A DNA stretch of 64,000 nt from Polyodon spathula (lineage: Eukaryota > Chordata > Actinopteri > Acipenseriformes > Polyodontidae): positions 60,856,184 through 60,920,183 of the forward strand of contig NC_054538.1 in the NCBI RefSeq assembly GCF_017654505.1, written 5' to 3'. Below the pieces are notes generated by a model. That model searched no databases and was not told where the DNA came from. It worked only from the letters and a program-made list of their open reading frames with translations. Every line of letters starts with the position of its first letter. Positions within the stretch are counted from its first letter, which is position 1. Position numbers and translations under genes: made by a program. Below, one piece after another: positions 278 through 44,699 of the stretch.

Positions 278-993
278 TGTGGCAAAGTGGTTTGCAGTGT
301 AGAGGTGATGCAGTGCTCAAGAGAATTACAACAATGTTACTGGTGAAATGATGGTTTATTTTGTAATCCAAAGCCACTTGACAACAATAAATAATAAAGT
401 TAACTGACAATACACAACGATGCGTATTGCTCAGTGAAAATATGAGGTTCAGTCCTGAAATAATAAACACAGTCCTTAATATACACACAATATACAAACA
501 TGGTCACAAGTCCAAAGTGAATGTTGTAGTGCTCGTGGTACAAATACAATTTATCATGAAATAAGTGCAATGATGTTCGGGTTTGTGCTGGCCTGTAGCA
601 ACAACTCTGGATTGTGTTAGCCGTTTAATAACAACTACAAGTATATAATTAGACACGACAAAACAAACAAAACACAATACATTTTCACACGGTTATCCTT
701 CTGGGTTAGCATTAACCATAACAAAGGAACAGATCACCTTGCTACATCCCCTTATATACCGCCAATCACGCACCCTTGGTTAACGATTACAGTCGCTCCT
801 CCAATGCGCAGCTGCCACTTCCAGGTCGCTGATGTAGTGTACCGTAGCTCTGTCCCCTTTCTATACAGCTTTTGCCTAACCCTGGGAATGAATTGTTTGG
901 TCATCCAGTCCAGGGCACTCTGTTCCCTTTACACAGCGTCCTCACAGGTCAGGAGGGAGCTTTATCACCAAGAATCATTCTGTCTCTGTCACA
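278..993 (-). mobile_element. Solo LTR, family B, copy 1
   Basis: Read on the minus strand this 716-bp block begins TGTGACAGAGACAG and ends CACTTTGCCACA, so it has the TG...CA ends of an LTR. It carries a TATA box (plus positions 751-758) and an AATAAA signal (plus 355-360) near its 3' end, in the order expected of an LTR promoter and polyadenylation site. The same sequence recurs at 20898-21560 and 44278-44699, and its 3' end follows a Gypsy integrase fragment at 9866-9998. No internal element sequence adjoins it, so it is a solo LTR. The flanks (CAGTA and CACGG) do not form a target duplication, unlike copy 2. Confidence 0.8.
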
Positions 994-1188
994 CACGGTG
1001 TGGCAGAGCAAAGCTCTGCCCTTTTAAATTGGCAGGGATGGGGTTAACTTCCCCTGCCTGCCTGGGTTTATTATGTTCAGGTGGCTGGGTCCCTACACAT
1101 ACAAAATTCAAAAAATCAATCAACCCTCACTTCTCCATTGATTAGTTGATTAGGTTGATTAACGATCAATCAGCGCCCAGCCACCTGA

Positions 1189-1195
1189 TATAAAA
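1189..1195 (+). promoter_or_regulatory. TATA box of the 5' LTR
   Basis: TATAAAA followed by a GC-richer GGAGGCCTC, positioned about 200 bp upstream of the AATAAA signal. This is the standard U3/R promoter layout of an LTR. Confidence 0.75.
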
Positions 1196-1392
1196 GGAGG
1201 CCTCAGCTTCTCATTTGGAAGGAGGGAGCTGAGGAAGCAGGTTGGTGTTTGTTTTGTGGTTTTTGAATTTTCTAAATCCAGTGAAGGCATTGCCCAGCCT
1301 GGAAACTTTATTTTTGTGAGTTTTGTTTTTGCTTTATTTGTGTTTGAGTATCTGTTATTTTGCCCTTGTGCACTTTATTTTTGTTTATTTAT

Positions 1393-1398
1393 AATAAA
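1393..1398 (+). terminator. AATAAA polyadenylation signal in the 5' LTR
   Basis: AATAAA within an AT-rich stretch about 60 bp before the LTR end. The equivalent site in the 3' LTR is at 4848-4853 and would end the element's transcript. Confidence 0.7.
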
Positions 1399-1462
1399 AC
1401 AGTTATTTTTTTGAACTGCAGTCTGTCTCTGGGCCTCTATCCACTCGCCAGCCTGCCACATT

Positions 1463-1480
1463 TGGTGTCAGAAGTGGGAT
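1463..1480 (+). other. Primer binding site
   Basis: TGGTGTCAGAAGTGGGAT begins two bases after the 5' LTR. It starts with TGG, complementary to a tRNA CCA end, and its complement matches the 3' end expected of a leucine tRNA. Gypsy-type elements commonly use such a primer. Confidence 0.8.
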
Positions 1481-1554
1481 AGCGCCACCTAGAGGCTCAG
1501 AGCAGTATTTTTTTTTTATTTATTTATTTTTTTTTTTTTTGGAAAAAAAAAAAA

Positions 1555-4413
1555 ATGGGAAAGAAGAGCAGACAGCGGCAAAGGCAGGAAAAACAGCAGC
1601 AGCTGAAGAAATGTAAGCTGCTGCAGCCACCGCTGGAGGACCCGGCCAGCCTCTTCCCCTGGTGTTCCTGGTGCGGGAAGGAGGACCATCGTTGGCGGTC
1701 CTGCCCAGATGTGCCACCGGCAAACTGGTGTGGCCGGTGTGAGGAGGACGGCCACAACTGGGCAGGATGCCCCTACAACCAGGCCCAGGAAGAGGTGCCT
1801 TGTTCACCCCGGGCATCAGGGGCCACCCCACTACCTCTAGCACCACCACCTTCACCACCGTCCCAGGAGATCTGGGACTGGTTGATGCACCCTGAGGCAG
1901 ACCTCGTCCACGATCTCCCCATAGTTATCAACACGCTGTGGCGTCGAGATGGGGAGAGGTGGGAACAGTGGGAGGAACAACACCACCCGGCGTCCTTCCC
2001 AGAGGTTGCCCTCATGGTGGTTAATTACCTGGCGGTAGACATGGGAGATCCACCGGTCACTCCAATAAAGAGAGGTGAGCCGCCTTCCCGAGAGCCAGAG
2101 AGGGGTGAGCCGCCTTCCCGAGAGCCAGAGAGGGAGGAGGAGCTGCCGTCGCCCCAGAGCCAGAGAGGGGTGAGGAGCTGCCGTCGCTCCCAGAGCCAGA
2201 GAGGGGTGAGGAGCTGCCGTCGTCCCCAGAGCCAGAGAGGGGTGAGGAGCTGCCGTCCGTCCTCCCAGAGCCAGAGAGGGGTGAGGAGCTGCCGTCGCTC
2301 CCAGAGCCAGAGAGGGGTGAGGAGCTGCCGTCGCTCCCAGAGCCAGAGAGGGGTGAGGAGCTGCCGTCGCTCCCAGAGCCAGAGAGGGGTGAGGAGCTGC
2401 CGTCGCTCCCAGAGCCAGAGAGGGGTGAGGAGCTGCCGTCGCTCCCAGAGCCAGAGAGGGGTGAGGAGCTGCCGTCGCTCCCAGAGCCAGAGAGGGGTGA
2501 GGAGCTGCCGTCGCTCCCAGAGCCAGAGAGGGGTGAGGAGCTGCCGTCGCTCCCAGAGCCAGAGAGGGGTGAGGAGCTGCCGTCGTCCCCAGAGCCAGAG
2601 AGGGGTGAGGAGCTGCCGTCGCCCCCAGAGCCAGAGAGGGGTGAGGAGCTGCCGTCGCTCCCAGAGCCAGAGAGGGGTGAGGAGCTGCCGTCGCTCCCAG
2701 AGCCAGAGAGGGAGGAGGAGCTGCCGTCGCTCCCAGAGCCAGAGAGGGGTGAGGAGCTGCCGTCGCTCCCAGAGCCAGAGAGGGGTGAGGAGCTGCCGTC
2801 GCTCCCAGAGCCAGAGAGGGGTGAGGAGCTGCCGTCGCTCCCAGAGCCAGAGAGGGAGGAGGAGCTGCCGTCGTCCCCAGAGCCAGAGAGGGGTGAGGAG
2901 CTGCCGTCGTCCCCAGAGCCAGAGAGGGGTGAGGAGCTGCCGTCGCTCCCAGAGCCAGAGAGGGGTGAGGAGCTGCCGTCGCTCCCAGAGCCAGAGAGGG
3001 GTGAGGATCTGCCGTCGCTCCCAGAGCCAGAGAGGGAGGAGGATCTGCCGTCGCTCCCAGAGCCAGAGAGGGAGGAGGATCTGCCGTCGCTCCCAGAGCC
3101 AGAGAGGGAGGAGGATCTGCCGTCGCTCCCAGAGCCAGAGAGGGAGGAGGATCTGCCGTCGCTCCCAGAGAGAGAGAGGGAGGAGGATCTGCTGTCGCTC
3201 CCAGAGCCAGAGAGGGAGGAGGAGCCTCCGTCGCTCCCAGAGCCAGAGAGGGAGGAGGATCTGCTGTTGCTCCCAGAGCCAGAGAGGGAGGAGGATCTGC
3301 TGTCGCTCCCAGAGCCAGAGAGGGAGGAGGATCTGCTGTCGCTCCCAGAGCCAGAGAGGGAGGAGGAGCCTCCGTCGCTCCCAGAGCCAGAGAGGGAGGA
3401 GGAGCCTCCGTCGCTCCCAGAGCCAGAGAGGGAGGAGGATCTGCTGTCGCTCCCAGAGCCAGAGAGGAGGAGGATCTGCTGTCGCTCCCAGAGCCAGAGA
3501 GGGAGGAGGATCTGCTGTCGCTCCCAGAGCCAGAGAGGGAGGAGGATCTGCCGTCGCTCCCAGAGCCAGAGAGGGAGGGAGGATCTGCTGTCGCTCCCAG
3601 AGCCAGAGAGGGAGGAGGATCTGCCGTCGCTCCCAGAGCCAGAGAGGGAGGAGGATCTGCTGTCGCTCCCAGAGAGAGAGAGGGAGGAGGATCTGCCGTC
3701 GCTCCCAGAGCCAGAGAGGGAGGAGGAGCTGCCGTCGCTCCCAGAGCCAGAGAGGGAGGAGGATCTGCCGTCGTCCTCAGAGCCCGAGAGGGAGGAGCCG
3801 CCGCCGCTCTCAGAGCCAGAGGGAGCCGGGCCGCCGCCGCCGCCTCCGCCACCAGAGGGAGCCGGGCCGCCGCCGCCGCCGCCGCCTCCGCCACCAGAGG
3901 GAGCCGGGCCGCCGCCGCCGCCTCCGCCACCAGAGGGAGCCGGGCCGCCGCCGCCGCCGCCACCTCCGCCACCAGAGGGAGCCGGGCCGCCGCCGCCGCC
4001 TCCGCCACCAGAGGGAGCCGGGCCGCCGTCGCCGCCTCCGCCACCAGAGGGAGCCGGGCCGCCGTCGCCGCCTCCGCCACCAGAGGGAGCCGGGCCGCCG
4101 TCGCCGCCTCCGCCACCAGAGGGAGCCGGCGCCGCCGCCGTCGCCGCCTCCGCCACCAGAGGGAGCCGGGCCGCCGTCGCCGCCTCCGCCACCAGAGGGA
4201 GCCGGGCCGCCGTCGCCGCCTCCGCCACCAGAGGGAGCCGGGCCGCCGTCGCCGCCTCCGCCACCAGAGGGAGCCGGGCCGCCGTCGCCGTACTACCTTG
4301 GAGATTCGGGGCCCCCTCAACCAAAGAAGGCTTGGGGGCTCCGACATCAACCCCGCCCACCACCACCCACCATAACAGCCCACCCAAGGGACATAATTGG
4401 ACTCTTGGGGGGA

Positions 4414-4447
<34 letters not shown>

Positions 4448-4548
4448 AGGGGGGAGTTGGCCGATTGCGGCCGGTGTACGTTGTACATGGGGGGAGGTGT
4501 GTGGCAGAGCAAAGCTCTGCCCTTTTAAATTGGCAGGGATGGGGTTAA
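1555..4548 (+). CDS. Gag-like protein with two CCHC zinc knuckles and a 12-residue repeat domain
   Basis: A 997-residue frame from the first ATG after the primer site. The N-terminus is basic (MGKKSRQRQRQ). Two perfect CX2CX4HX4C knuckles follow: C37-C40-H45-C50 and C59-C62-H67-C72, the RNA-binding motif of retroviral and Gypsy nucleocapsid. Residues about 105-165 are Trp- and acid-rich. The rest is a 12-residue repeat. As annotated it reads SQSQRGVRSCRR, but the flanking non-repeat frame and residues 185-200 indicate the ancestral reading was acidic, LPSLPEPERGEE. A 1-base loss near 2151-2155 shifts the frame; further indels lie near 3466, 3577 and 4130, the last returning the C-terminus to the first frame. 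No capsid, protease or polymerase domain is seen. The final part runs through a 30-G tract into the 3' LTR. Function: RNA binding or packaging is inferred from the knuckles. Confidence 0.75.
2130..3800 (+). repeat. 36-bp coding minisatellite, about 46 copies
   Basis: Consensus unit contains CAGAGCCAGAGAGG, then GGTGAGGAG or GAGGAGGAT, then CTGCCGTCGCTCC. Two main variants are segregated in blocks: GGTGAGGAG dominates to about 3000, GAGGAGGAT/GAG afterwards. That pattern suggests local duplication of groups of units. The unit has no stop codon in either strand's long frames, so frameshifts leave reading frames open. Confidence 0.92.
3810..4290 (+). repeat. Proline-rich 36-bp repeat, about 13 copies
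   Basis: GC-rich units ending CCACCAGAGGGAGCCGGG that encode a 12-residue unit of the type PPSPPPPPEGAG in the frame aligned with the acidic repeat. Unit length varies with CCG-triplet number. A 4-base gain at about 4128-4138 changes the reading frame. Confidence 0.88.
4417..4446 (+). repeat. Run of 30 G
   Basis: Uninterrupted G tract flanked by further G-rich sequence (4407-4455), just upstream of the 3' LTR. It could form G-quadruplex structures, and its true length is hard to sequence. Confidence 0.85.
4488..4499 (+). other. Polypurine tract before the 3' LTR
   Basis: GGGGGGAGG-type purine run directly before TGTGGCAG, in the expected place for plus-strand priming. The longer G-rich tract further upstream may also contribute. 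Confidence 0.6.
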
Positions 4549-4915
4549 CTTCCCCTGCCTGCCTGGGTTTATTATGTTCAGGTGGCTGGGGTTGATTAGT
4601 TGATTAGGTTGATTAACGATCAATCAGCGCCCAGCCACCTGACATAAAAGGAGGCCTCTGCTTCTCATTTGGAAGGAGGGAGCTGAGGAAGCAGGTTGGT
4701 GTTTGTTTTGTGGTTTTTTGAATTTTCTAAATCCAGTGAAGGCATTGCCCAGCCTGGAAACTTTATTTTTGTGAGTTTTATTTTTGCTTTATTTGTGTTT
4801 GAGTATCTGTTATTTTGCCCTTGTGCACTTTATTTTTGTTTATTTATAATAAAACAGTTATTTTTTTGAACTGCAGTCTGTCTCTGGGCCTCTATCCACT
4901 CGCCAGCCTGCCACA
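4500..4915 (+). repeat. 3' LTR of the Gag-only element
   Basis: 416 bp, same ends as the 5' LTR, followed by the target duplicate CACGG at 4916-4920. It lacks the 46-bp block found in the 5' copy and has CATAAAA (4643-4649) instead of TATAAAA. AATAAA lies at 4848-4853. Confidence 0.92.
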
Positions 4916-4920
4916 CACGG

Positions 4921-6723: not shown

Positions 6724-6759
<36 letters not shown>
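6724..6759. repeat. TA microsatellite
   Basis: About 18 TA units between the ends of two Tc1-like transposons, which insert at TA. Confidence 0.95.
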
Positions 6760-6762
<3 letters not shown>

Positions 6763-8382
6763 TGCCTTGCAAAAGTATTCAGACCCCTGACAAATTTTCT
6801 CATATTACTGAATTACAAATGGTACATTGAAATTTCGTTCTGTTTCATATTTTATATTTAAACACTGAAACTCAGAATCAATTATTATAAGGTAACATTG
6901 GTTTTATGTTGGGAAATATTTTTAAGAAAAAATAAAAAAACTGAAATATCTTGCTTGCATAAGTATTCAACCCCCACACATTAATATTTGGTAGAGCCAC
7001 CTTTCGCTGCAATAACAGCTTTAAATCTTTTGGGGTAAGTATGTACCAGCTTTGCACACAGTGTCGGAGTGATTTTGGCCCATTCTTCTTCGCAGATTTG
7101 CTCCAGGTTGTTCAGGTTGGTTGGACGACGCTTGTGGACCGCAATTTTCAAATAGTGTCACAGATTCTCAATGGGATTGAGATCAGGACTTTGACTGGGC
7201 CACTGTAGGACATTCACCTTTTTGTTCTTGAGCCACTCCAAAGTTGCTTTGGCCTTGTGCTTGGGATCACTGTCCTGCTGAAATGTGAATTTCCTCCCAA
7301 ACTTCAGTTTTTTAGCGGACTGAAGCAGATTCTCTTGCAGTATTTTCCTGTATTTTGCTCCATCCATTCTTCCTTCAATTGTAACAAGATGCCCAGTCCC
7401 TGCTGATGAGAAGCATCCCCACATCATGATGCTGCCACCACCATACTTCACTGCAGGGATGGTGTGACTTGAGGCATGGTCAATGTCAGGTTTGCACCAC
7501 ACATAGCGCTTTGAGTTTTGGCCAAAAAGCTCTATCTTGGTCTCATCTGACCAGAAAACCTTTTCCCACATCGCAGCTGGGTGACTCTCATGCTTTCTGG
7601 CAAACTCCAGACGTGCTTTCAGATGGTACTTTTTGAGTAACGGCTTCTTTCTTGCCACCCTCCCATACAGGCCAGTGTTATGCAGAGCTCTTGATACGGT
7701 TGACTGGTGCACCATTACTCCACTCCCAGCCACTGAACTCTGTAGCTCCTTCAAAGTGACTGTTGGCCTCTCTGTGGCTTCTCTCACAAGTCTCCTTCTT
7801 GTTTGAGTGTTGAGTTTTGAGGGACGGCCTTTTCTTGGCAGTGTCTGGGTGATGTGATGCAGCTTACATTTCCTGATTATTGGTCCAACTGTGCTCACTG
7901 GGATATCCAAACACTTGGATATTATTTTGTACCCTTTCCCTAATCTATGCATACTATCTAATCTATATCTAACTTCTGTAGAATGCTCTTTGGTCTTCAT
8001 TTTCCTTCAGATTCACAGCCTTACCAATGATCCTTCAACAGTGGGGTTTTTATCCAGAAAATGTGACAGCAATTTTAAAGGTTCACAGGTGGAGGCCAAT
8101 GGTAAGGTAATTGTGTCCTCGTTAGGGCAATTTCTTTCATCGGTGCAAACTGGGAGCTTCCACAGCACAGGGGTTGAATACTTATGCAAGCAAGATATTT
8201 CAGTTTTTTATTTTTCTTAAAAATATTTCCCAACATAAAACCAGTGTCACCTTACAATAATTCATTCTGAGTTTCAGTGTTTAAAAATAAAATATCAAAC
8301 AGAACGAAATTTCAATGTACCATTTGTAATTCGGTAATATGAGAGAATTGGTCAGGGGTCTGAATACTTTTGCAAGCCACTG
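6760..8382 (-). mobile_element. Tc1-like transposon with long inverted repeats
   Basis: Inverted repeats of about 215 bp (6760-6975 and 8170-8382) begin CAGTGCCTTGCAAAAGTATT and pair almost throughout. TA-rich sequence lies on both sides; on the right the two bases after the repeat are TG rather than TA. The transposase is on the minus strand and nearly intact. The repeats' high mutual identity and the nearly complete frame suggest a relatively young copy. Confidence 0.92.
6981..8000 (-). pseudogene. Tc1-like transposase, one premature stop
   Basis: From ATG at 8000 the frame runs 280 residues to a TGA at 7158-7160, then stays open in the same frame to TAA at 6981-6983, giving about 339 residues, the usual Tc1 length. 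The N-terminus is a paired-like helix-turn-helix region (residues 1-110) with a GRPSK-type hook. Catalytic residues are present: VFWSDETKIELF supplies the first Asp, FQQDSDPKHKAKATLEWL the second, and [12 protein letters not shown] the Glu (DD34E). The stop falls where relatives have Trp in an NLWRDLK motif, so TGG to TGA is the likely lesion; the next two residues also differ from that motif. All catalytic residues precede the stop, so the truncated protein lacks only the C-terminal ~59 residues. Confidence 0.9.
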
Positions 8383-9551
8383 TGTATATATATAAATGGA
8401 TCTGTATTTGTTTAATGACACTTTTAAAGACATTGCTGCAGTAACATTGTGCAAGTGAACTACTTGTTATAAACAAAAACATGCTTCTAAATTAAAAATA
8501 AATGTTATGGGTTGCAAATTCCCACATTTGGTTCCAGTATTAAATCATTTCATAAGCTTTCAACTCAGACTTCTACTGTTTTTTTTTTGTGCCTTCAAGA
8601 CAAAAGCTAAGGATTTTTTTTTTACAGCTTAATGTTTAGTCTGTTCATCATGATGGTAGGAGAAAGTCAATTTCAAAGCAGTCAAGAAAGGGTTTTGTAA
8701 GACAAATGACACATGTTGAACAGATTGTATCAATAAAGACTTTTTACCAGAAAAAAATGGAACCATAATAGTTGTCCTTATATATAAAGCAAAAGACCCT
8801 TTTAAAATACCACACCAACTAATGACTTCAACCCATATAGAATTACAGTATACAGTATACTGTATGTATATATTTTTTAATTCAAGGTTACTGCAGTACT
8901 TAATTTGGTCATATAGGTCATATCTCCATTTCCTGAAAAAAGAATATAGCCTCCTATGTGAAAAATTACTGGCCAAGCATAACACAGAAAGGCATCTTGA
9001 GAAAAGATCAGTATCTGTTCACAACCTGGGAAAACCCAGGAGAATGTGATATATGTAGTACCACATAGCCCATTCTTGTTGAGTGATTTATATGACATAT
9101 TCCATTCACTAAGTGGAGTGTCTGGAAGAATGATGGTCTGACCAAAGGATACCGACACAAGATTTAAAATCTTGACCTCCATAACCTACTATTCATTGGC
9201 ATGATAGACCTTGAGAGAACGCGTCCAATGACCCTTAGGCTAAAAAGTATTTTCTTATCCTGAAAAAATGTATGATAGAAACTGTATGCATAATAATTAT
9301 TAGACACCCAGTGGATAAAAACTGAAAGAAATCATCCACGGAAAGAAAGCCATGGTGTAGCTGGGTTTTTGTTTTGACTGGTTGCATTCAAATGAACACT
9401 TCCTTTGTATGGTATAATGCATCACATTAAATGTGTTAAAGAAGAAGAAAAGAACCAGGATGGAGTGCTGCAATCCAACAATAAATGAGTGTAACAGAGA
9501 GTGAATGTGTTAGTGTTGAGCTGAAGAAAATTGGCAGACATCTAGGCATCG
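8383..9551. other. Non-coding, AT-rich
   Basis: No recognisable gene or element. Short frames (8629-8985, 8822-9049 and 8877-9182) overlap one another on both strands and show no family resemblance. Confidence 0.5.
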
Positions 9552-9998
9552 ATGCCTTGGATGCAAGTTGTAACACATTTGATGGTTCCCCAGTTTTATC
9601 GAGTAGAGATCATGAGGCTGGTGCATGACATCCCTTCTGCAAGACACTTGGGAGCCAACAAAATTATGGAGCACATATTGGCCCTATTTTACTGGGTAGG
9701 ACTTCATAAGGAAGTGTCAAAATATGTAGCCACATGCCAAGACTGCCAGTCAGTAGCGGGTTCAGTTCGTCCCTCCTCTTTGATCCCACTGCCAGTAATT
9801 TCCACTCCCTTTGAACGCATTGTAATGGACATTGTAGGCCCTTTGCTACCTTCTGCATTTACACATTGCTGTGTATTGCCAGTATTATTATTTAAGCAAT
9901 TAATAAAGCTTCATTTTCACCATTGAACTGTTGTTGGACTGTTGTTTCTAAGCACTGCATCACCTCCACACCTGTGCATTACAAACCACTTTGCCACA
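9552..9998 (+). mobile_element. Gypsy remnant: integrase fragment joined to family-B LTR
   Basis: The frame 9552-9880 is the N-terminal half of a Gypsy integrase. It contains the HHCC zinc-binding domain (LVHDIPSARHLG then CQDCQ about 38 residues later) and the start of the catalytic core (PFERIVMDIVGP, first Asp). It stops abruptly and continues at about 9866-9998 as the last ~130 bp of the family-B LTR, with AATAAA and the terminal CACTTTGCCACA. The rest of the integrase and most of the LTR are deleted. This join identifies family B as the LTR of a Gypsy element. Confidence 0.85.
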
Positions 9999-11344: not shown

Positions 11345-12542
11345 TTAATGCTTTTTTAATATGCCGGTGGCAGACCTCTTGGAACACTTTGGATTAGAAA
11401 TTCCAGCCCTGGTTGGAGTGTAATTTGTCCGGAATTACAAATCTGCTGAAGAACCCTTCAAGAAGCGCTTCTCTCACTGTCTCCGCTTCTTGGTCTGGTA
11501 TGGCGTAAGCCTATGCCCACTTCGTGAAGCAATCAACTGTCTTCCCTCTGGTCGAATGAAAAATGGGCCCAGGACATCCACCGGCACACCCCCATCGGGG
11601 CGCAAACCTGGTACTGATGCAACGGAGCTAGGGACTGACCCTGGAGGCCTTTCAGAGCGGTGCAGGAATCGTATCGGCCCCAGTAGAAGGCCTGATGAAG
11701 ACAAATCAGCGTTTTGGTGACCCCACAATGACCAGTGCCCGACGTCCCAGGATATTTTGCCAACATCTCTTCTGTCAACTCCCTGGGAACCACCACCTTC
11801 CACCATTCCTCTCTGGTTGCCAGCTCCATCCAGCGCCGCTGTAGTAGCCCGCCTCTGAGGGCAAACCTGGGCCACTGGGCCCACAGTCCTTTGTACTGCC
11901 TGCGACATCGGGGCAACCTCTTTCCAGTTGGGTTTTCTTCCCTCTTCCAGCCATTGCAGCACTGGCTTCAGGTCTGAGTTCCCATCCTGGCGGACCCTCC
12001 AGGCTCCAACTCCACTGGCAACAGCATCCAGCTCAGGTGACGTAGCCTCCATCTTGTCCGAACGGTGGTAATACTGGCAGTCTTCCTGGGCACAGGGGCA
12101 ATGGGACAAGGCATCTGCATTTTGGTGTTTCTCTCTGGCACGATGTTGTACGGTGTAATAGAAGTCCTGCAGCTGCTCAATTCAATGGGCCACTTGACCC
12201 TCAGGTTATTGGAGGACATCAGCCACTGTAGCGCTGCATGGTCAGTGCAGACGGTGAATGGCGTACAGACTCCACGGCGGCCAGCAGTTCACAATAATTG
12301 CATTCAGCTCTACTGACGGTCTGGTTGTAGTACACAACCACCTTCTCTACCTCCGGGGACTGCTGGGCCAGAACCATGCCGATCCCCTCATCACTGGCGT
12401 CAGTGTCCAAAACGAATGGCAGGTGCGGGTTAGGTTGGGCTAACACAGGGGCCTGACACAATACGATCTTTATGGTGTCCAGTTCCTCTTGTCTTTCAAC
12501 GGTCCAAATGAATGGCTCATCCTTCCGCAAGAGACTGTACAT
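11345..12542 (-). pseudogene. Gypsy pol remnant: RNase H and integrase
   Basis: On the minus strand, 12542 to 12219 encodes the end of reverse transcriptase and the RNase H domain (FVLDTDASDEGIGMVLAQQ, with the two catalytic aspartates, then SRAECNYCELLAAVESVRH). 12219 to 12060 continues as the RNase H end and connection (HQNADALS-type segment). 11916 to 11533 encodes the integrase zinc-binding region (TGHCGVTKTL, YWGRY) and the start of the core (VDVLGPF). 11520 to 11345 reaches the second catalytic region, where the usual Asp before QG is Asn. Frames change several times. No LTR was found at either end, so both ends are truncated. The same general Gypsy group is represented at 39845-41967. 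Confidence 0.88.
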
Positions 12543-12729
12543 GGTATTCTACTTTATTATTTTTATTTACTAGTCCGCAATGTGTTTAGCTGTAATTAGA
12601 TTAGTCTCTACTCTCTGCCTGGCTCAATGACTGAGAGTCTACTGTTTTTCAGTCAGCCTATTCAAAGGCTGGAGCCTGCTTGCCAGGTGCGCTTTTTTGG
12701 TCAGTCAATTAGCATCAGGACTAATGAAA
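12543..12729. other. Short gap without features
   Basis: Separates the Gypsy and piggyBac remnants. Nothing recognisable. Confidence 0.4.
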
Positions 12730-13180
12730 AAAAATACCAGAGACCGTGGAGTTTTACTACGCAACAAAATATGGAGTTGATGTTTTGGATCAGATGGCAC
12801 GGAAGTATTCTGTGAAAGCTGGCTCTCGACAGTGGCTTTTTCAGGTGTTTTATAATGTACTGGACCTAGCAGTCATCAACTCCCGGGTACCTTACAAAGA
12901 ATGCATGGAGAAGAATTTACCAAGGAGAGAATATTTTTTATACTTAGCACAGGAACTTTGCAAGGAGCATTTGGAACAGAGGGAGACTAACAAGCTTGTA
13001 CCCACAGCTGAAGCTGGCAACCCCTCTGAGAGCCGCAAGAGATGCCAATGCCAGGTTGGCAAGTGCAATAAAAATAAAACTTTGGGCAACTGTGCCTTGT
13101 GCAGAAAGGCAGTGTGGAGAAGCACATTATTTGTGTTGACTGTGAAACGCCTTAGACTCATAAAAAAAAAAATGAAAAAA
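12730..13180 (+). pseudogene. piggyBac-type transposase, C-terminal fragment
   Basis: Frame 12746-13240 contains TKYGVDVLDQMARKYSVKAG, a hallmark of piggyBac transposases and their PGBD relatives, where the third catalytic Asp lies in DVLDQM. The segment FQVFYNVLDLAVINS and a Cys-rich end (CQCQVGKCNKNKT, CALCRKAV) follow; that is the family's C-terminal cross-brace zinc domain. A frame break at about 12735-12745 separates it from a short upstream segment, and the N-terminal two thirds are absent. Later Lys-rich residues are probably read-through. A piggyBac-type MITE occurs at 40592-40674. Confidence 0.88.
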
Positions 13181-13240
13181 ATGAAAAATAAATGCTTTTT
13201 TTTAACTTCTTGTACTGTGTCCTTCTGTAAAATGTTTTAA

Positions 13241-20897: not shown

Positions 20898-21560
20898 TGT
20901 GGCAAAGTGGTGACAGTGTGCAGGTGCAGGTGTGCAGCAGTGATCAATAAACAGACAGACAATGATAATCCAGGTGCAATGGTGTTTTATTTTAAATCCA
21001 AGTCCCCCGTAATCCAGTAAATATTAACAATGATAAGCAATACAGCGGCGTGTATTGATTTACTGTAATCCTCGGGTTGATCCCGAAATAATAATAGCCC
21101 CGATATTTTACACCCACACATAACACAAACACAAGTCCACAGTGCGTGCTTTATTGTTCAAACAAGGTGAAGTGTTGTCCAGGTTTAGTGCTCGTATTTC
21201 AGCTGTCTAAATAATAACAAACAGTATTTTAAAACAGGACAAGAAACAAACAAAGCACTCATGATAACAACACAGATTTCTCCTTCCGGATCACGTTTAA
21301 CCATTAGAAAGGAACAGATCACCTTGCTCCGTCCCCTTTTGTACCATCTATCATGACCCCTTGGTTAACGAGTGCAACAGCTCCTCCAATCAGCGGATGT
21401 CACATAGTTTCCCTTTTCCTTTTCTGGATGACCAACTTCTGCCTAACCCTGGGAATTAATTGTCTGGCCACCTAGTCCAGGGCACTCTGTTCCCTTTACA
21501 CAGCGCCCTCACAGGTCGGGAGGGAGAAGTACCACCAAAAATCATTTTGTCTCTGTCACA
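20898..21560 (-). mobile_element. Solo LTR, family B, copy 2
   Basis: 663 bp with the same ends as copy 1, flanked by a perfect 5-bp target duplication CTTGG (20893-20897 and 21561-21565). That confirms the LTR boundaries of the family and shows that this is a solo LTR left by recombination. The TATA box of copy 1 is degraded here. Confidence 0.92.
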
Positions 21561-21565
21561 CTTGG

Positions 21566-23607: not shown

Positions 23608-25795
23608 ATGTCAAGGAAGACCTCAGTCTCTGATCACTTTGATGAGCCAAGGGAAGGTAGCAAAGTGGGAAATCATTGTGCTATATGTAAACATTGCGGA
23701 ACATCTGTCTCTGGCTCAACAAAAGCTACTTCAAAGCTACTTCTTAGATAGATACATTTATCATTTTAATGTTTAGTGTGTTTATTATTAATTAGTGAAT
23801 TTTATGATGCAGGTAGAAAATATTTAGTGCAAATTTGTGTAAAGATGTGTGGTTATATAATTGATGAACTAATAGAGGTTCACTAAAACTACTCAATCTC
23901 CATAATGCATTAATAGTTTTTGTAATAAATTGGTTAAGTGTATCCACTCCTCAATGGAAAACTGTATTTCAGTGGGTAGCTCTTACCTGATTACATTTTT
24001 TGCATAGGTTGCAAGCATCATGCCTTATGGTGCCTTTGTACTAAGCAGGTCTCGCTGAATGATTTAGTATTATCATTTGTATCTTACTGTATCAAGACAG
24101 ATTAAATACAGATAATTAGATATTTCATTTGAATCTAGGTTTCATTATTGTAAGGTGATAATTAAATGTTAAGCTTCACCTGGTAACTGAGGACTGCTTA
24201 TTTTGCTGGATTTGTCGTTCAATGTGTTATGTACATAAAATGTATGATTATTTTTTTCCTCTGTGCATTTGCAGAGAAAGCATCCTGATATCCTTGGGGA
24301 GTTTGCTGATCAATCTGGCCAGAGTTCAGATGCGAATAAGTGGGAGGCCACAGATCCTTGCCAAGTGAAGATTACCAACAACATTGTTAGCTCGATTGCT
24401 AATGATCTCATGCCCCTGTCTGTTGTAGACAGCACAGCCTTTCATGACATCCTTTGCCCAGCAGGAAACGCCTCAGCCAGAAGCTACTTCCTCAACACAC
24501 CTCCAGTGTCAAATGCAAGCCCAGGACATCTACCTCACCATATATGTGTGGTCAAGTAGAGATATGAGGTCCTTTATTGGCATCAAGGGCCACTTCATTG
24601 TGGACTACGCATTAAAAACTGTCCTGTTGGCTTGTCTGCATTTTAGGGGTGCACATACTGCAGAGGACATCTACAGAACTTATGAAGAGACTATTGAAGT
24701 CTACAACATGGCTGACAGTTTCAGGCATAGTGTCTGATAATGCTGCCAACATGAAGGCATTCATATTATTCCCACCATTGTGTGTCCAAGATGGTGACGA
24801 AGACCAAGAAGAGGCTGTTGATATTGAAGTGATGAGCGTGATCGACAAACATGTTTCGCTCACACTACAGCTGGTTGCTCTTGATGCCCTAGAGCAAGCT
24901 GGCCCTTTAAGACTGGTGATGGCAAAGGTGTCCAGAATAGTATCTAATTGTTATAAATCCACCAAAGCAACAGAGTTACTGGAGGGACACTACAAAGTGC
25001 AAATTTCAAATGCCACAAGGACAAATAGCCAGCTGAAGATGCTGAGGTCAATTTTAAAAGTTCCTGCAGAGGTCCTATCTGAGGTTCATGCCCCATGCAA
25101 GCTCACACTGTACGAATTGAAAATCATTGGGAAACTGTGAAATACTGGAGCCTTTTGAAGAGGTCACTGAGAAGGTCCAGGGAGATCAGATAATCACTGC
25201 CGGCTTAAGTCATACAATATCACACATCAGTGAAACCAATAACAACAAGATGGTGGTAACCATACAGTTATCCTTGGAGACTCGCCTTGCAATGTTTGAG
25301 AAGATGGAGTGTTTCAAAATGGCTGCAAGTCTGGATCCTCGTTTCAAATTGGACTGGTGCAAGGATGAAGATGTGCACAGCGTGAAGGAACTGCTGACTA
25401 ATAAGATCACCTCACTGCTACCAAGAGTTGCTGACATGGCTACACCCCCTCCACAAAAGACACACACCAAACTCTTTTCATATATGACCAAACGCGCCAC
25501 TGAAATCTGCAGCAGTATTTCCACCACAGACGCACCTTCTGAAGTATCAAACTACCTGAGCCAACCCTATCTGCCAGAGGATCCTGATCCTCTGGCTTAT
25601 TGGAAAGGAAAACAGATGGAGTTCCTCCATTTAGCTCAACTAGCCTGCAAGCATCTAGCCATACCTGCTTCATCTGCACCTGCAGAAAGCCTCTTTATTG
25701 TGGCAGGCAAAGTTTTCAGGCCTGAGCGGTGCAACCTAAGTGATGCAAAATTTGAAGAGCTTATGGTGATCCGGTATAACAGAACTGATAAATGA
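23608..25795 (+). pseudogene. hAT transposase with BED finger (element B)
   Basis: A ZBED-type hAT transposase broken by frameshifts. The ATG at 23608 opens a BED finger (CAICKHCGTS) that stops at 23749; its second half (HLQRKHPDIL) resumes at 24266, so about 520 bp interrupt the finger. 24266-24540 encodes a segment ending near the first catalytic region. In the next frame GHFIVDYALKTVLLACLHFR (24588-24650) leads to VSGIVSDNAANM (24720-24755), the RNase H-like core. 24770-25138 and 25127-25795 give the helical insertion and the C-terminal dimerisation domain (LAIPASSAPAESLFIVAGKV, usually ERLFS). Because at least three frame changes are needed, the gene is dead. The acceptor-like TTTGCAG at 24268-24274 could mean an intron, but no GT donor lies at 23745. 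Confidence 0.88.
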
Positions 25796-26784: not shown

Positions 26785-28034
26785 GTGAATATTTTACATC
26801 TGCCAACATCAATGAGTGTCCACTTGTGAATGAGTTGTTCCAAACACATGGAATGTGTACCATCAGGTACAGGCAGAGAGTAAACATGCCCCACCTCTTG
26901 ATTTGATGTGCGGTACTCATATCCGGCACACAGTATATCATGCTTTATGGTGATTGACACAATTTGGTGAGAAACTCAACAACATCTTGCTGTTCAACTT
27001 TACTGAAGGGTTCTCCTAAGAAGTGACAAATGTCCACAGTACTCAGAGATGTAGTGCATGGCAGCTGATCGTAGGGCTTGTTGTTCACTCTGTTTTAATG
27101 ATTCCTTCAAAGGTTGGCAGTGAAGAAGACATTGCAAAGTGACGTGTGAATAGCAGGAGGTAAGATTAGTGTTGCTCAAGCCTCTGATTGGATGTGTGAC
27201 TGCAAATGTTCCCTCAGAACGTGATAGCTTTTGCTGTTCCTGAACATCGGCAATGGCTTGACGTAAGAAATGCAAACGATCTTTCACCATGGATCCCTTG
27301 TGCGTGTTGATCTGCTGCAAGCTTCTCAACAGAGGGCAGTAAAGACCTGTGAGCCTGCTGTACTCTGCCAGTGCAGTTGGAAGTGCCTTAATTTGAGTGG
27401 GGTCAAAGTTGATAAGGTGTACGCCACTTAAGGAAGTAACTCTGGAAAGTGCCACAAAACTTTGGCCACAGGAGAAAATGGAGTTACCAAGGTCCATCAT
27501 CACTGTTTTGAGTGTAATGCCCTGACATTTGTGAATGGTGATGGCATGAGCACCGATGACTGGAAACTGCTCTTGAACAATGTAGGCCCTGTCCATGACT
27601 TCAAACTTTGACCTCAAGTGTTCAAAGGTATGCCATTGGTGTGCCAAGGTGTGTCCATTGATAAAATGGATGGTTATAGTTTTCACCATCCTGGGGTTTT
27701 CGAGATAACAGGAAATAGCTTGAAGTTTCCCTATTGCCCCATTGATGAGATCAGTGGCAACATCAATATTCCTCCGAAGCATCTGCTTGCTGCCTGTTTT
27801 CACTCATATGCTAGTTTCCAGTCCAGCTGCACGACTGCAGTCAGCCTTGTAAGCTTTATTTTTTTTCAGCACATTTTCCTTAAAGGAAGGAAGGCAGTCC
27901 ACAGTGTCCATTGCCAATAGATGAATGTCCTCCCCAGGCATACTATCAAGCACACCGGTCTGTATCTGGTTACAGGTGTCTACTGTAGACAGAAGACAGG
28001 TTAAAGTTCCGTCTTTGTCATGTAAGTCTTTCAT
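26785..28034 (-). pseudogene. PIF1/Helitron-type helicase fused to a USP-like domain
   Basis: From 28034 down, the minus-strand frame is open apart from one TGA at 27804-27806. Residues around MLRRNIDVATDLINGAIG, FPVIGAHAITIHKCQGITL (helicase motif V) and GQSFVALSRVTSLSGVHLIN (motif VI) identify the C-terminal half of a PIF1-family helicase like that of Helitrons. About 60 codons later, GLSNTNLTSCYSHVTLQCLL (27186-27122) matches the Cys box of ubiquitin-specific proteases (peptidase C19), with the catalytic Cys at about 27153-27155. In another frame, VGHVYSLPVPDGTH and a C-rich context (26733-26960) resemble the USP finger region. Walker A and the helicase N-terminus are not present. Frameshift and stop make this a pseudogene. 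Helicase assignment is firm; the protease assignment is inference from short motifs. Confidence 0.75.
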
Positions 28035-44277: not shown

Positions 44278-44699
44278 TGTGGCCAAGTGGTTTGTAGTGC
44301 ACAGGTGCAGTGGTGATGCGGTGCTCAGGAATGATAGACACTTGACAGTTCATGGTGAAAAAGCAGATGTTTATTTGCTGACAAATAATAATACCTGGCT
44401 CTATACAACGATGTGTATCATTCAGGCAAACCACGGGGTTCAGTACCGAAATAATAATACACTAAACAAGATACACACAAACACAACAAGGCCACAAGTC
44501 CAGAGTGAGTGCTTTTAGTGAAAGTGGTGATTTACAGGTATCCGGGCAACAGGTATCCCCTTCCTGGATGGCTGGCTTCCGACTTACCCTGGGATGAACT
44601 GCCAGACCATCCAGTATGAGGCACACTGTTCCTGTTATACAGTGCCTTCACAGGTCGGGAGGGAGATTGTTGACTAGGATTCATTCGTTCTCTGTCACA
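44278..44699 (-). mobile_element. Solo LTR, family B, copy 3 (internally deleted)
   Basis: 422 bp, same ends as copies 1 and 2 (minus strand TGTGACAGAG ... CACTTGGCCACA), with about 250 bp missing from the middle including the TATA region. Flanks ACAAG and TATCC do not match. Confidence 0.8.

What the first reader, a model, noticed from the sequence alone, without database searches (positions are those of the whole stretch)
999..4915. Gag-only LTR element carrying a large coding minisatellite
A complete, target-duplicated element encodes nothing but a two-zinc-knuckle protein whose body is about 60 tandem 12-residue units. TR-GAG elements are known from plants; a vertebrate one with an expanding repeat domain would be a distinct class. 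Its protein may package the RNA while a Gypsy partner supplies the enzymes.
Basis: partly seen in the sequence, partly recalled or inferred. Interest (0 to 1): 0.75.

Follow-up and report, generated by a model that had tools for sequence, protein, structure and literature searches.

The report
Paddlefish jumping element lacking enzymes
This is one copy of a sturgeon-and-paddlefish family of virus-like jumping elements that seem to carry no copying enzymes and encode only one RNA-binding-type protein with a long, expanding repeat region, so they probably borrow another element's machinery to move.

Summary
The element is real: LTRs 999-1460 and 4500-4915 (411 of 415 aligned bases identical), 5-bp target duplication CACGG, primer-site and polypurine-tract candidates, and one coding region filling the interior. 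Its N-terminus has two CCHC knuckles and a confidently modelled four-helix domain. Two different 36-nt arrays follow (47.4 and 13.3 copies), then a conserved tail. The printed 997-residue frame is not the natural one throughout: it slips inside the arrays and is back in the N-terminal frame for the tail.

It does not look like a deleted one-off. The 92 relatives found are named as sturgeon or paddlefish proteins, and none has a pol domain. Four reach the tail; in three it is followed by sequence matching the LTR start, weakly when scored alone. Relatives mostly repeat 10-residue units; the window's 12-residue unit is a local form. So this is a gag-like-only, non-autonomous LTR family of Acipenseriformes, comparable to plant TR-GAG, but 'Gag' is unproven: no gag domain was recognised. 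Movement by a Ty3/Gypsy partner is inferred. The host genome could not be searched, so copy number and partner remain open.

The parts
994..998 (.). target-site duplication CACGG, left copy
999..1460 (+). 5' LTR (TGTGGC...GCCACA); TATAAAAG at 1189-1196, AATAAA at 1393-1398; contains a 47-nt block absent from the 3' LTR
1463..1480 (+). primer-binding-site candidate TGGTGTCAGAAGTGGGAT, tRNA-Leu-like (tRNA match recalled, not computed)
   Evidence: one match in the window, chance mean 0.01
1555..4548 (+). ORF as printed (997 aa); in the family's frame at the N-terminus, the last units of the second array and the tail; slips inside the arrays
1663..1704 (+). zinc knuckle 1, CSWCGKEDHRWRSC (residues 37-50)
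1729..1770 (+). zinc knuckle 2, CGRCEEDGHNWAGC (residues 59-72)
1861..2040 (+). conserved four-helix domain (residues 103-162); model of 1846-2058 has pLDDT 94.2; no clear fold match
2068..2133 (+). about two 30-nt units (GEPPSREPER) of the 10-residue type seen in relatives
2116..3821 (+). first 36-nt array, about 47 copies, acidic reading EELPSLPEPERG
3797..4290 (+). second 36-nt array, about 13 copies, proline-rich reading PPPPPEGAGPPS
4291..4488 (+). conserved C-terminal tail (..WGLRHQPRPPPP..AHPRDIIGLLGGG..GRLRP..), including a G-rich run at 4407-4454
   Evidence: score 223 to P0083, best of 200 shuffles against five proteins 89
4489..4499 (+). polypurine-tract candidate GGGGGGAGGTG
   Evidence: read
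4500..4915 (+). 3' LTR
4916..4920 (.). target-site duplication CACGG, right copy

Best explanation
A member of a non-autonomous LTR-retrotransposon family of sturgeons and paddlefish whose only gene encodes a nucleocapsid-like protein: basic N-terminus, two CCHC knuckles, a small four-helix domain, then an acidic/proline-rich repeat region (presumably disordered) and a conserved tail. Shown: LTRs, target duplication, primer-site and polypurine-tract candidates, one ORF filling the interior, and no pol in any relative found. Inferred: the LTR drives an mRNA; the protein binds that RNA by its knuckles and the four-helix domain brings the complex into particles of an autonomous Ty3/Gypsy element; the partner's reverse transcriptase (primed by tRNA-Leu) and integrase copy and insert it, giving the 5-bp duplication. 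A Gmr1/Abr1-type element, reported from a Siberian sturgeon with a tRNA-Leu primer site, is one candidate partner. The repeat region would be a length-tolerant spacer that grows and shrinks by tandem duplication, mostly in multiples of three.
For: LTR pair 411 of 415 aligned bases identical, plus a 5-bp duplication. The ORF begins 94 nt after the 5' LTR, and the tail lies just before the polypurine tract. 92 of 92 relatives are named as Acipenser or Polyodon proteins. A Pfam scan of all 93 proteins at E up to 1e-5 gave 26 families, 25 shown, none an RT, integrase or retroviral protease; the unshown one is most likely PF02932, seen at 5.6e-6. Of four relatives with the tail (P0067, P0079, P0083, P0092), three go on into LTR-start-like sequence in the right place. 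Paddlefish P0061 has an LTR-start stretch before its knuckles (score 94, highest shuffle 55). Knuckle ligands average 96% identity to the window in 25 non-redundant rows, against 75% for other knuckle residues, 65% for the helical domain and 46% for the linker. 38 of 93 proteins showed internal repeats in my scan, 33 with a 10-residue unit.
Against: No gag domain at E up to 1e-5 in 93 proteins; at E up to 1 only single zinc-knuckle (CCHC) hits, 0.1 or worse, among 55. No fold match. In PDB sequence searches the knuckles match retroviral nucleocapsid only weakly (best E 0.0095), and with the profile ClpX zinc domains rank first (0.018). The LTR-start matches of P0083 and P0092 alone score 42 and 48, inside the shuffle range (mean 35, maximum 55), and the tail of P0067 scores 81, below the shuffle maximum of 89. 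Relatives are gene models, many fused to host genes, so lack of pol could partly reflect masking. No partner seen. Array variation is not enriched at third codon positions (0.012, 0.077, 0.077), so no sign of selection on the exact repeat sequence. The window copy's frame is disrupted. No expression or RNA-binding data.
Confidence: 0.7

Rival explanations
1. Deletion derivative: this copy, or the whole family, lost pol from an autonomous element that still exists with the same LTR and ORF.
For: Non-autonomous centromeric elements of Coffea, TR-GAGs among them, resemble autonomous kin (passages of PMC5818461). The A. sinensis set consists of gene models, which may be masked for pol.
Against: P0067, 59% identical to the window over its aligned part, and P0083 and P0092 go from tail to LTR-start-like sequence without pol. 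By the tool's length rule allowed candidates up to about 1745 aa; its 12 hits had no pol domain.
Confidence: 0.15
2. ORF as passenger: the element is moved by a partner through LTR, primer site and packaging signal alone, and the protein does nothing for mobility.
For: The printed window frame is disrupted in the arrays. TRIMs are thought to be moved in trans while coding for no such protein (passages of PMC10886601).
Against: Knuckle ligands and tail are kept between divergent relatives, and the tail stays in the N-terminal frame in the window despite the slips.
Confidence: 0.2
3. Captured or domesticated host gene: the ORF is a cellular zinc-knuckle gene picked up by an LTR element, or the locus now serves the host.
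For: Several gene models join the ORF to host exons (P0061, P0063, P0079).
Against: No relative outside Acipenseriformes in three protein searches of limited sensitivity. The relatives are many and lie on many contigs. The host domains in the fusions are all different, one member each, as insertions into introns would give.
Confidence: 0.06

Closest known systems
[quoted passage not shown] Chaparro et al. 2015 as cited in PMC6022998, PMC5818461 and PMC10552921; passages seen)
   Same: two LTRs, a gag-type gene only, no pol
   Different: in a fish; no recognised gag domain; knuckles near the N-terminus; long expanding coding minisatellite; autonomous kin not identified
Ty3/Gypsy Gmr1/Abr1 group (cod and Siberian sturgeon; passages of PMC11640988 and PMC11117352)
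   Same: tRNA-Leu primer site reported for the sturgeon element (the window's tRNA-Leu match is recalled)
   Different: carries gag and pol, fused in one frame in pufferfish relatives; no sequence of it could be compared here
TRIM / Helenus elements, including those of sterlet and paddlefish (passages of PMC10886601)
   Same: non-autonomous LTR elements in the same fishes; animal Helenus is thought to be moved by Gypsy
Retroviral nucleocapsid and LIN28 double knuckles (PDB)
   Same: tandem CX2CX4HX4C knuckles
   Different: best E 0.0095; no capsid domain beside them; a four-helix domain and repeats follow

Membership tests
LTR retrotransposon | two direct LTRs with TG..CA ends and target-site duplication | tested here: met
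LTR retrotransposon | primer-binding site after the 5' LTR and polypurine tract before the 3' LTR | tested here: inconclusive
   candidates in the right places; the tRNA-Leu identity is recalled, not computed
TR-GAG | no pol between the LTRs | tested here: met
TR-GAG | recognisable GAG domain | tested here: not met
   0 Pfam families for the window protein and no gag family in 93 proteins at E up to 1e-5; knuckle spacing met by pattern only
TR-GAG | autonomous kin sharing LTR or primer site | not tested
   The genome search did not complete (14 requests, listed under Tried and rejected)
Gag protein | capsid (CA) fold upstream of the knuckles | tested here: inconclusive
   only a short basic stretch lies upstream; the helical domain lies downstream and gave no clear fold match
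Gmr1/Abr1 group | gag-pol with integrase upstream of RT (order recalled) | tested here: not met
   no pol in the element
TRIM | shorter than 1000 bp and coding for no mobility protein (PMC10886601 passage) | tested here: not met
   3917 bp with an ORF

The most novel reading that the evidence does not exclude
A long-lived vertebrate lineage of 'satellite' LTR elements that has given up capsid and enzymes but keeps a purpose-built packaging adaptor: knuckles to hold its own RNA, a new four-helix domain to dock on a partner's Gag, and a disordered repeat spacer under selection for composition rather than sequence, so that a coding minisatellite evolves freely in each copy.
Probability: 0.3. Interest if true: 0.72.

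Novelty: new variant of a known kind. Interest (0 to 1): 0.52.

Why it matters
Non-autonomous LTR elements that keep only a gag gene are described from plants: the 12 papers in the library that hold both 'TR-GAG' and 'retrotransposon' are, by title and start of abstract, all on plants or plant data (listing). A vertebrate family with a dedicated knuckle protein that lacks a recognised capsid would show how a parasite of a retrotransposon can keep a protein of its own, and would make the question 'what does a minimal packaging protein need' testable. The arrays also record how coding minisatellites grow inside a mobile element.

Full report
What is there. The element runs from 999 to 4915. Its LTRs (462 and 416 bp) agree at 411 of 415 aligned bases; the 5' LTR has a 47-nt block and the 3' LTR one extra base. 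Both have TG...CA ends, and CACGG stands on either side. The 5' LTR has TATAAAAG and AATAAA. An 18-nt primer-site candidate starts two bases after it; I recall its complement as the 3' end of vertebrate tRNA-Leu, which no call tested. GGGGGGAGGTG precedes the 3' LTR.

The arrays. TRF finds 47.4 copies of one 36-nt unit and 13.3 of another. Of 44 spacings between 45 anchors in the first array, 41 are exactly 36. Among those 41 units there are 12 variants, and identical neighbours occur 18 of 40 times against 7.4 expected; 0 of 10,000 shuffles reached that. The array grew by local tandem duplication (inference). Before it stand about two 30-nt units coding GEPPSREPER. In my scan of 93 proteins, 38 showed internal repeats, 33 of them with a best period of 10 residues, often SREPEG-like, and none with 12. 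So the window's 12-residue unit is a local form, most simply grown from that 10-residue type (inference).

The frame. Read from the first ATG, the frame is acidic and proline-rich for the first two units, then slips inside the first array into an arginine/serine-rich frame; further slips follow, and by the last four anchored units of the second array the original frame is back. The tail is in the N-terminal frame and aligns with P0083, P0079 and P0092 (scores 223, 197, 188; best of 200 shuffles against five proteins 89). P0067 scores 81, below that maximum, but holds the AHPRDI.GLLG motif. The 997-aa length is possible only because that frame of the arrays holds no stop. Arrays of P0073 and P0092 also look out of frame. 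I cannot tell real slips from assembly errors.

Relatives. Three protein searches returned 57, 12 and 67 hits, 92 distinct proteins. By the sources' names all are Acipenser sinensis, A. ruthenus or Polyodon spathula. In one search only the 7988 candidates sharing most words were scored, and the search needs shared 5-residue words, so distant relatives elsewhere are not excluded. The closest are three Polyodon proteins (99% over 36% of P0001, 94% over 68%, 92% over 60%), so the window is probably paddlefish. Many are gene models fused to host exons, as insertions into introns would give. A Pfam scan of all 93 (P0001 included) at E up to 1e-5 gave 26 families; the 25 shown, each in one member, are host domains and one piggyBac-type transposase (PF13843, P0080), and none is RT, integrase or retroviral protease. 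The one not shown is most likely PF02932 (5.6e-6 in P0081).

Conservation. The knuckle ligands are kept best: 96% mean identity to the window over 25 rows kept of 55, against 75% for the rest of the knuckles, 65% for the helical domain and 46% for the linker (rows dropped as over 90% alike or too gappy). By pattern, 43 of 93 proteins have two knuckles, 16 one, 6 three or four and 28 none, fragments included.

Is it a deleted copy? Four relatives contain the tail. P0083, P0092 and P0067 continue into codons that match the start of the LTR (VAEQ.., WQSRALP..), where the window's 3' LTR begins; P0079 has the tail but is unclear there. Taken alone these LTR matches are weak (42 and 48 for P0083 and P0092, shuffle maximum 55; P0067 did not reach the listing cut-off of 38). 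P0061 from paddlefish has a stronger LTR-start stretch before its knuckles (score 94). Together they suggest an ORF that fills the space between LTRs in divergent copies, without room for pol. The caveat is that the A. sinensis models may have been made on masked sequence.

How it works. I favour trans-mobilisation: own RNA bound by own knuckle protein, enzymes and probably capsid from a Gypsy element. The anatomy shows what it lacks; the rest is inference. An element with a tRNA-Leu primer site has been reported upstream of the IGLV gene of the Siberian sturgeon (Abr1, called the closest relative of cod Gmr1; passages of PMC11640988); the paper estimates at least 800 copies of a 218-bp piece of that region in sterlet. 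That is a lead only: its primer sequence and LTR were not compared.

What is known. In the passages I saw, TR-GAG means LTRs and a gag domain without pol (PMC6022998, PMC5818461, PMC10552921). The element looks as if it works like one but fails the domain test, so I do not file it there. Helenus TRIMs from the same fishes (PMC10886601, passages) are non-coding. My paper searches listed no description of this family; only listings were seen for most, and subscription papers and Repbase were not available.

Verdict. A real LTR element, ordinary in outline, with an unusual single protein. New variant of a known kind; interest moderate, because a conserved knuckle protein without recognised capsid and with an evolving coding minisatellite in a vertebrate can be tested at once in public assemblies.

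Noticed in passing
window 627-994: The left flank is a dispersed repeat: 627-994 matches 21210-21561 (73%) and 868-993 matches 44575-44699 (75%). It ends in CTCTGTCACA, TGTGACAG on the other strand, 5 bp from the element, so it may be another LTR.
   Followed up: partly
window 6728-8414: Tc1/Sleeping-Beauty-type transposon: inverted arms of 211 nt (90%) around a transposase frame at 7158-8006 minus (PF01498, PF25787).
   Followed up: partly
window 9546-9926 and 11474-12181: Gypsy-like fragments: an integrase zinc-binding domain (PF17921) on the plus strand; the second looks like RNase H to integrase by eye but has no Pfam hit.
   Followed up: partly
window 12728-13240 and 24616-25795: piggyBac-type (PF13843) and hAT-type (PF05699) transposase remnants.
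   Followed up: partly
window 27000-27803 minus: Helicase-like frame, Helitron-like by eye, with only weak Pfam hits (E 0.002).
   Followed up: no
P0039, P0043, P0041, P0053, P0088, P0089 (relatives): Some relatives carry extra or different knuckles (for example CTQCMQYGHEEHHC in P0039), several share a block LLRGAQGRRTRLR between repeats, and P0041 and P0053 have the helical domain without knuckles: parts seem to be shuffled between subfamilies.
   Followed up: no
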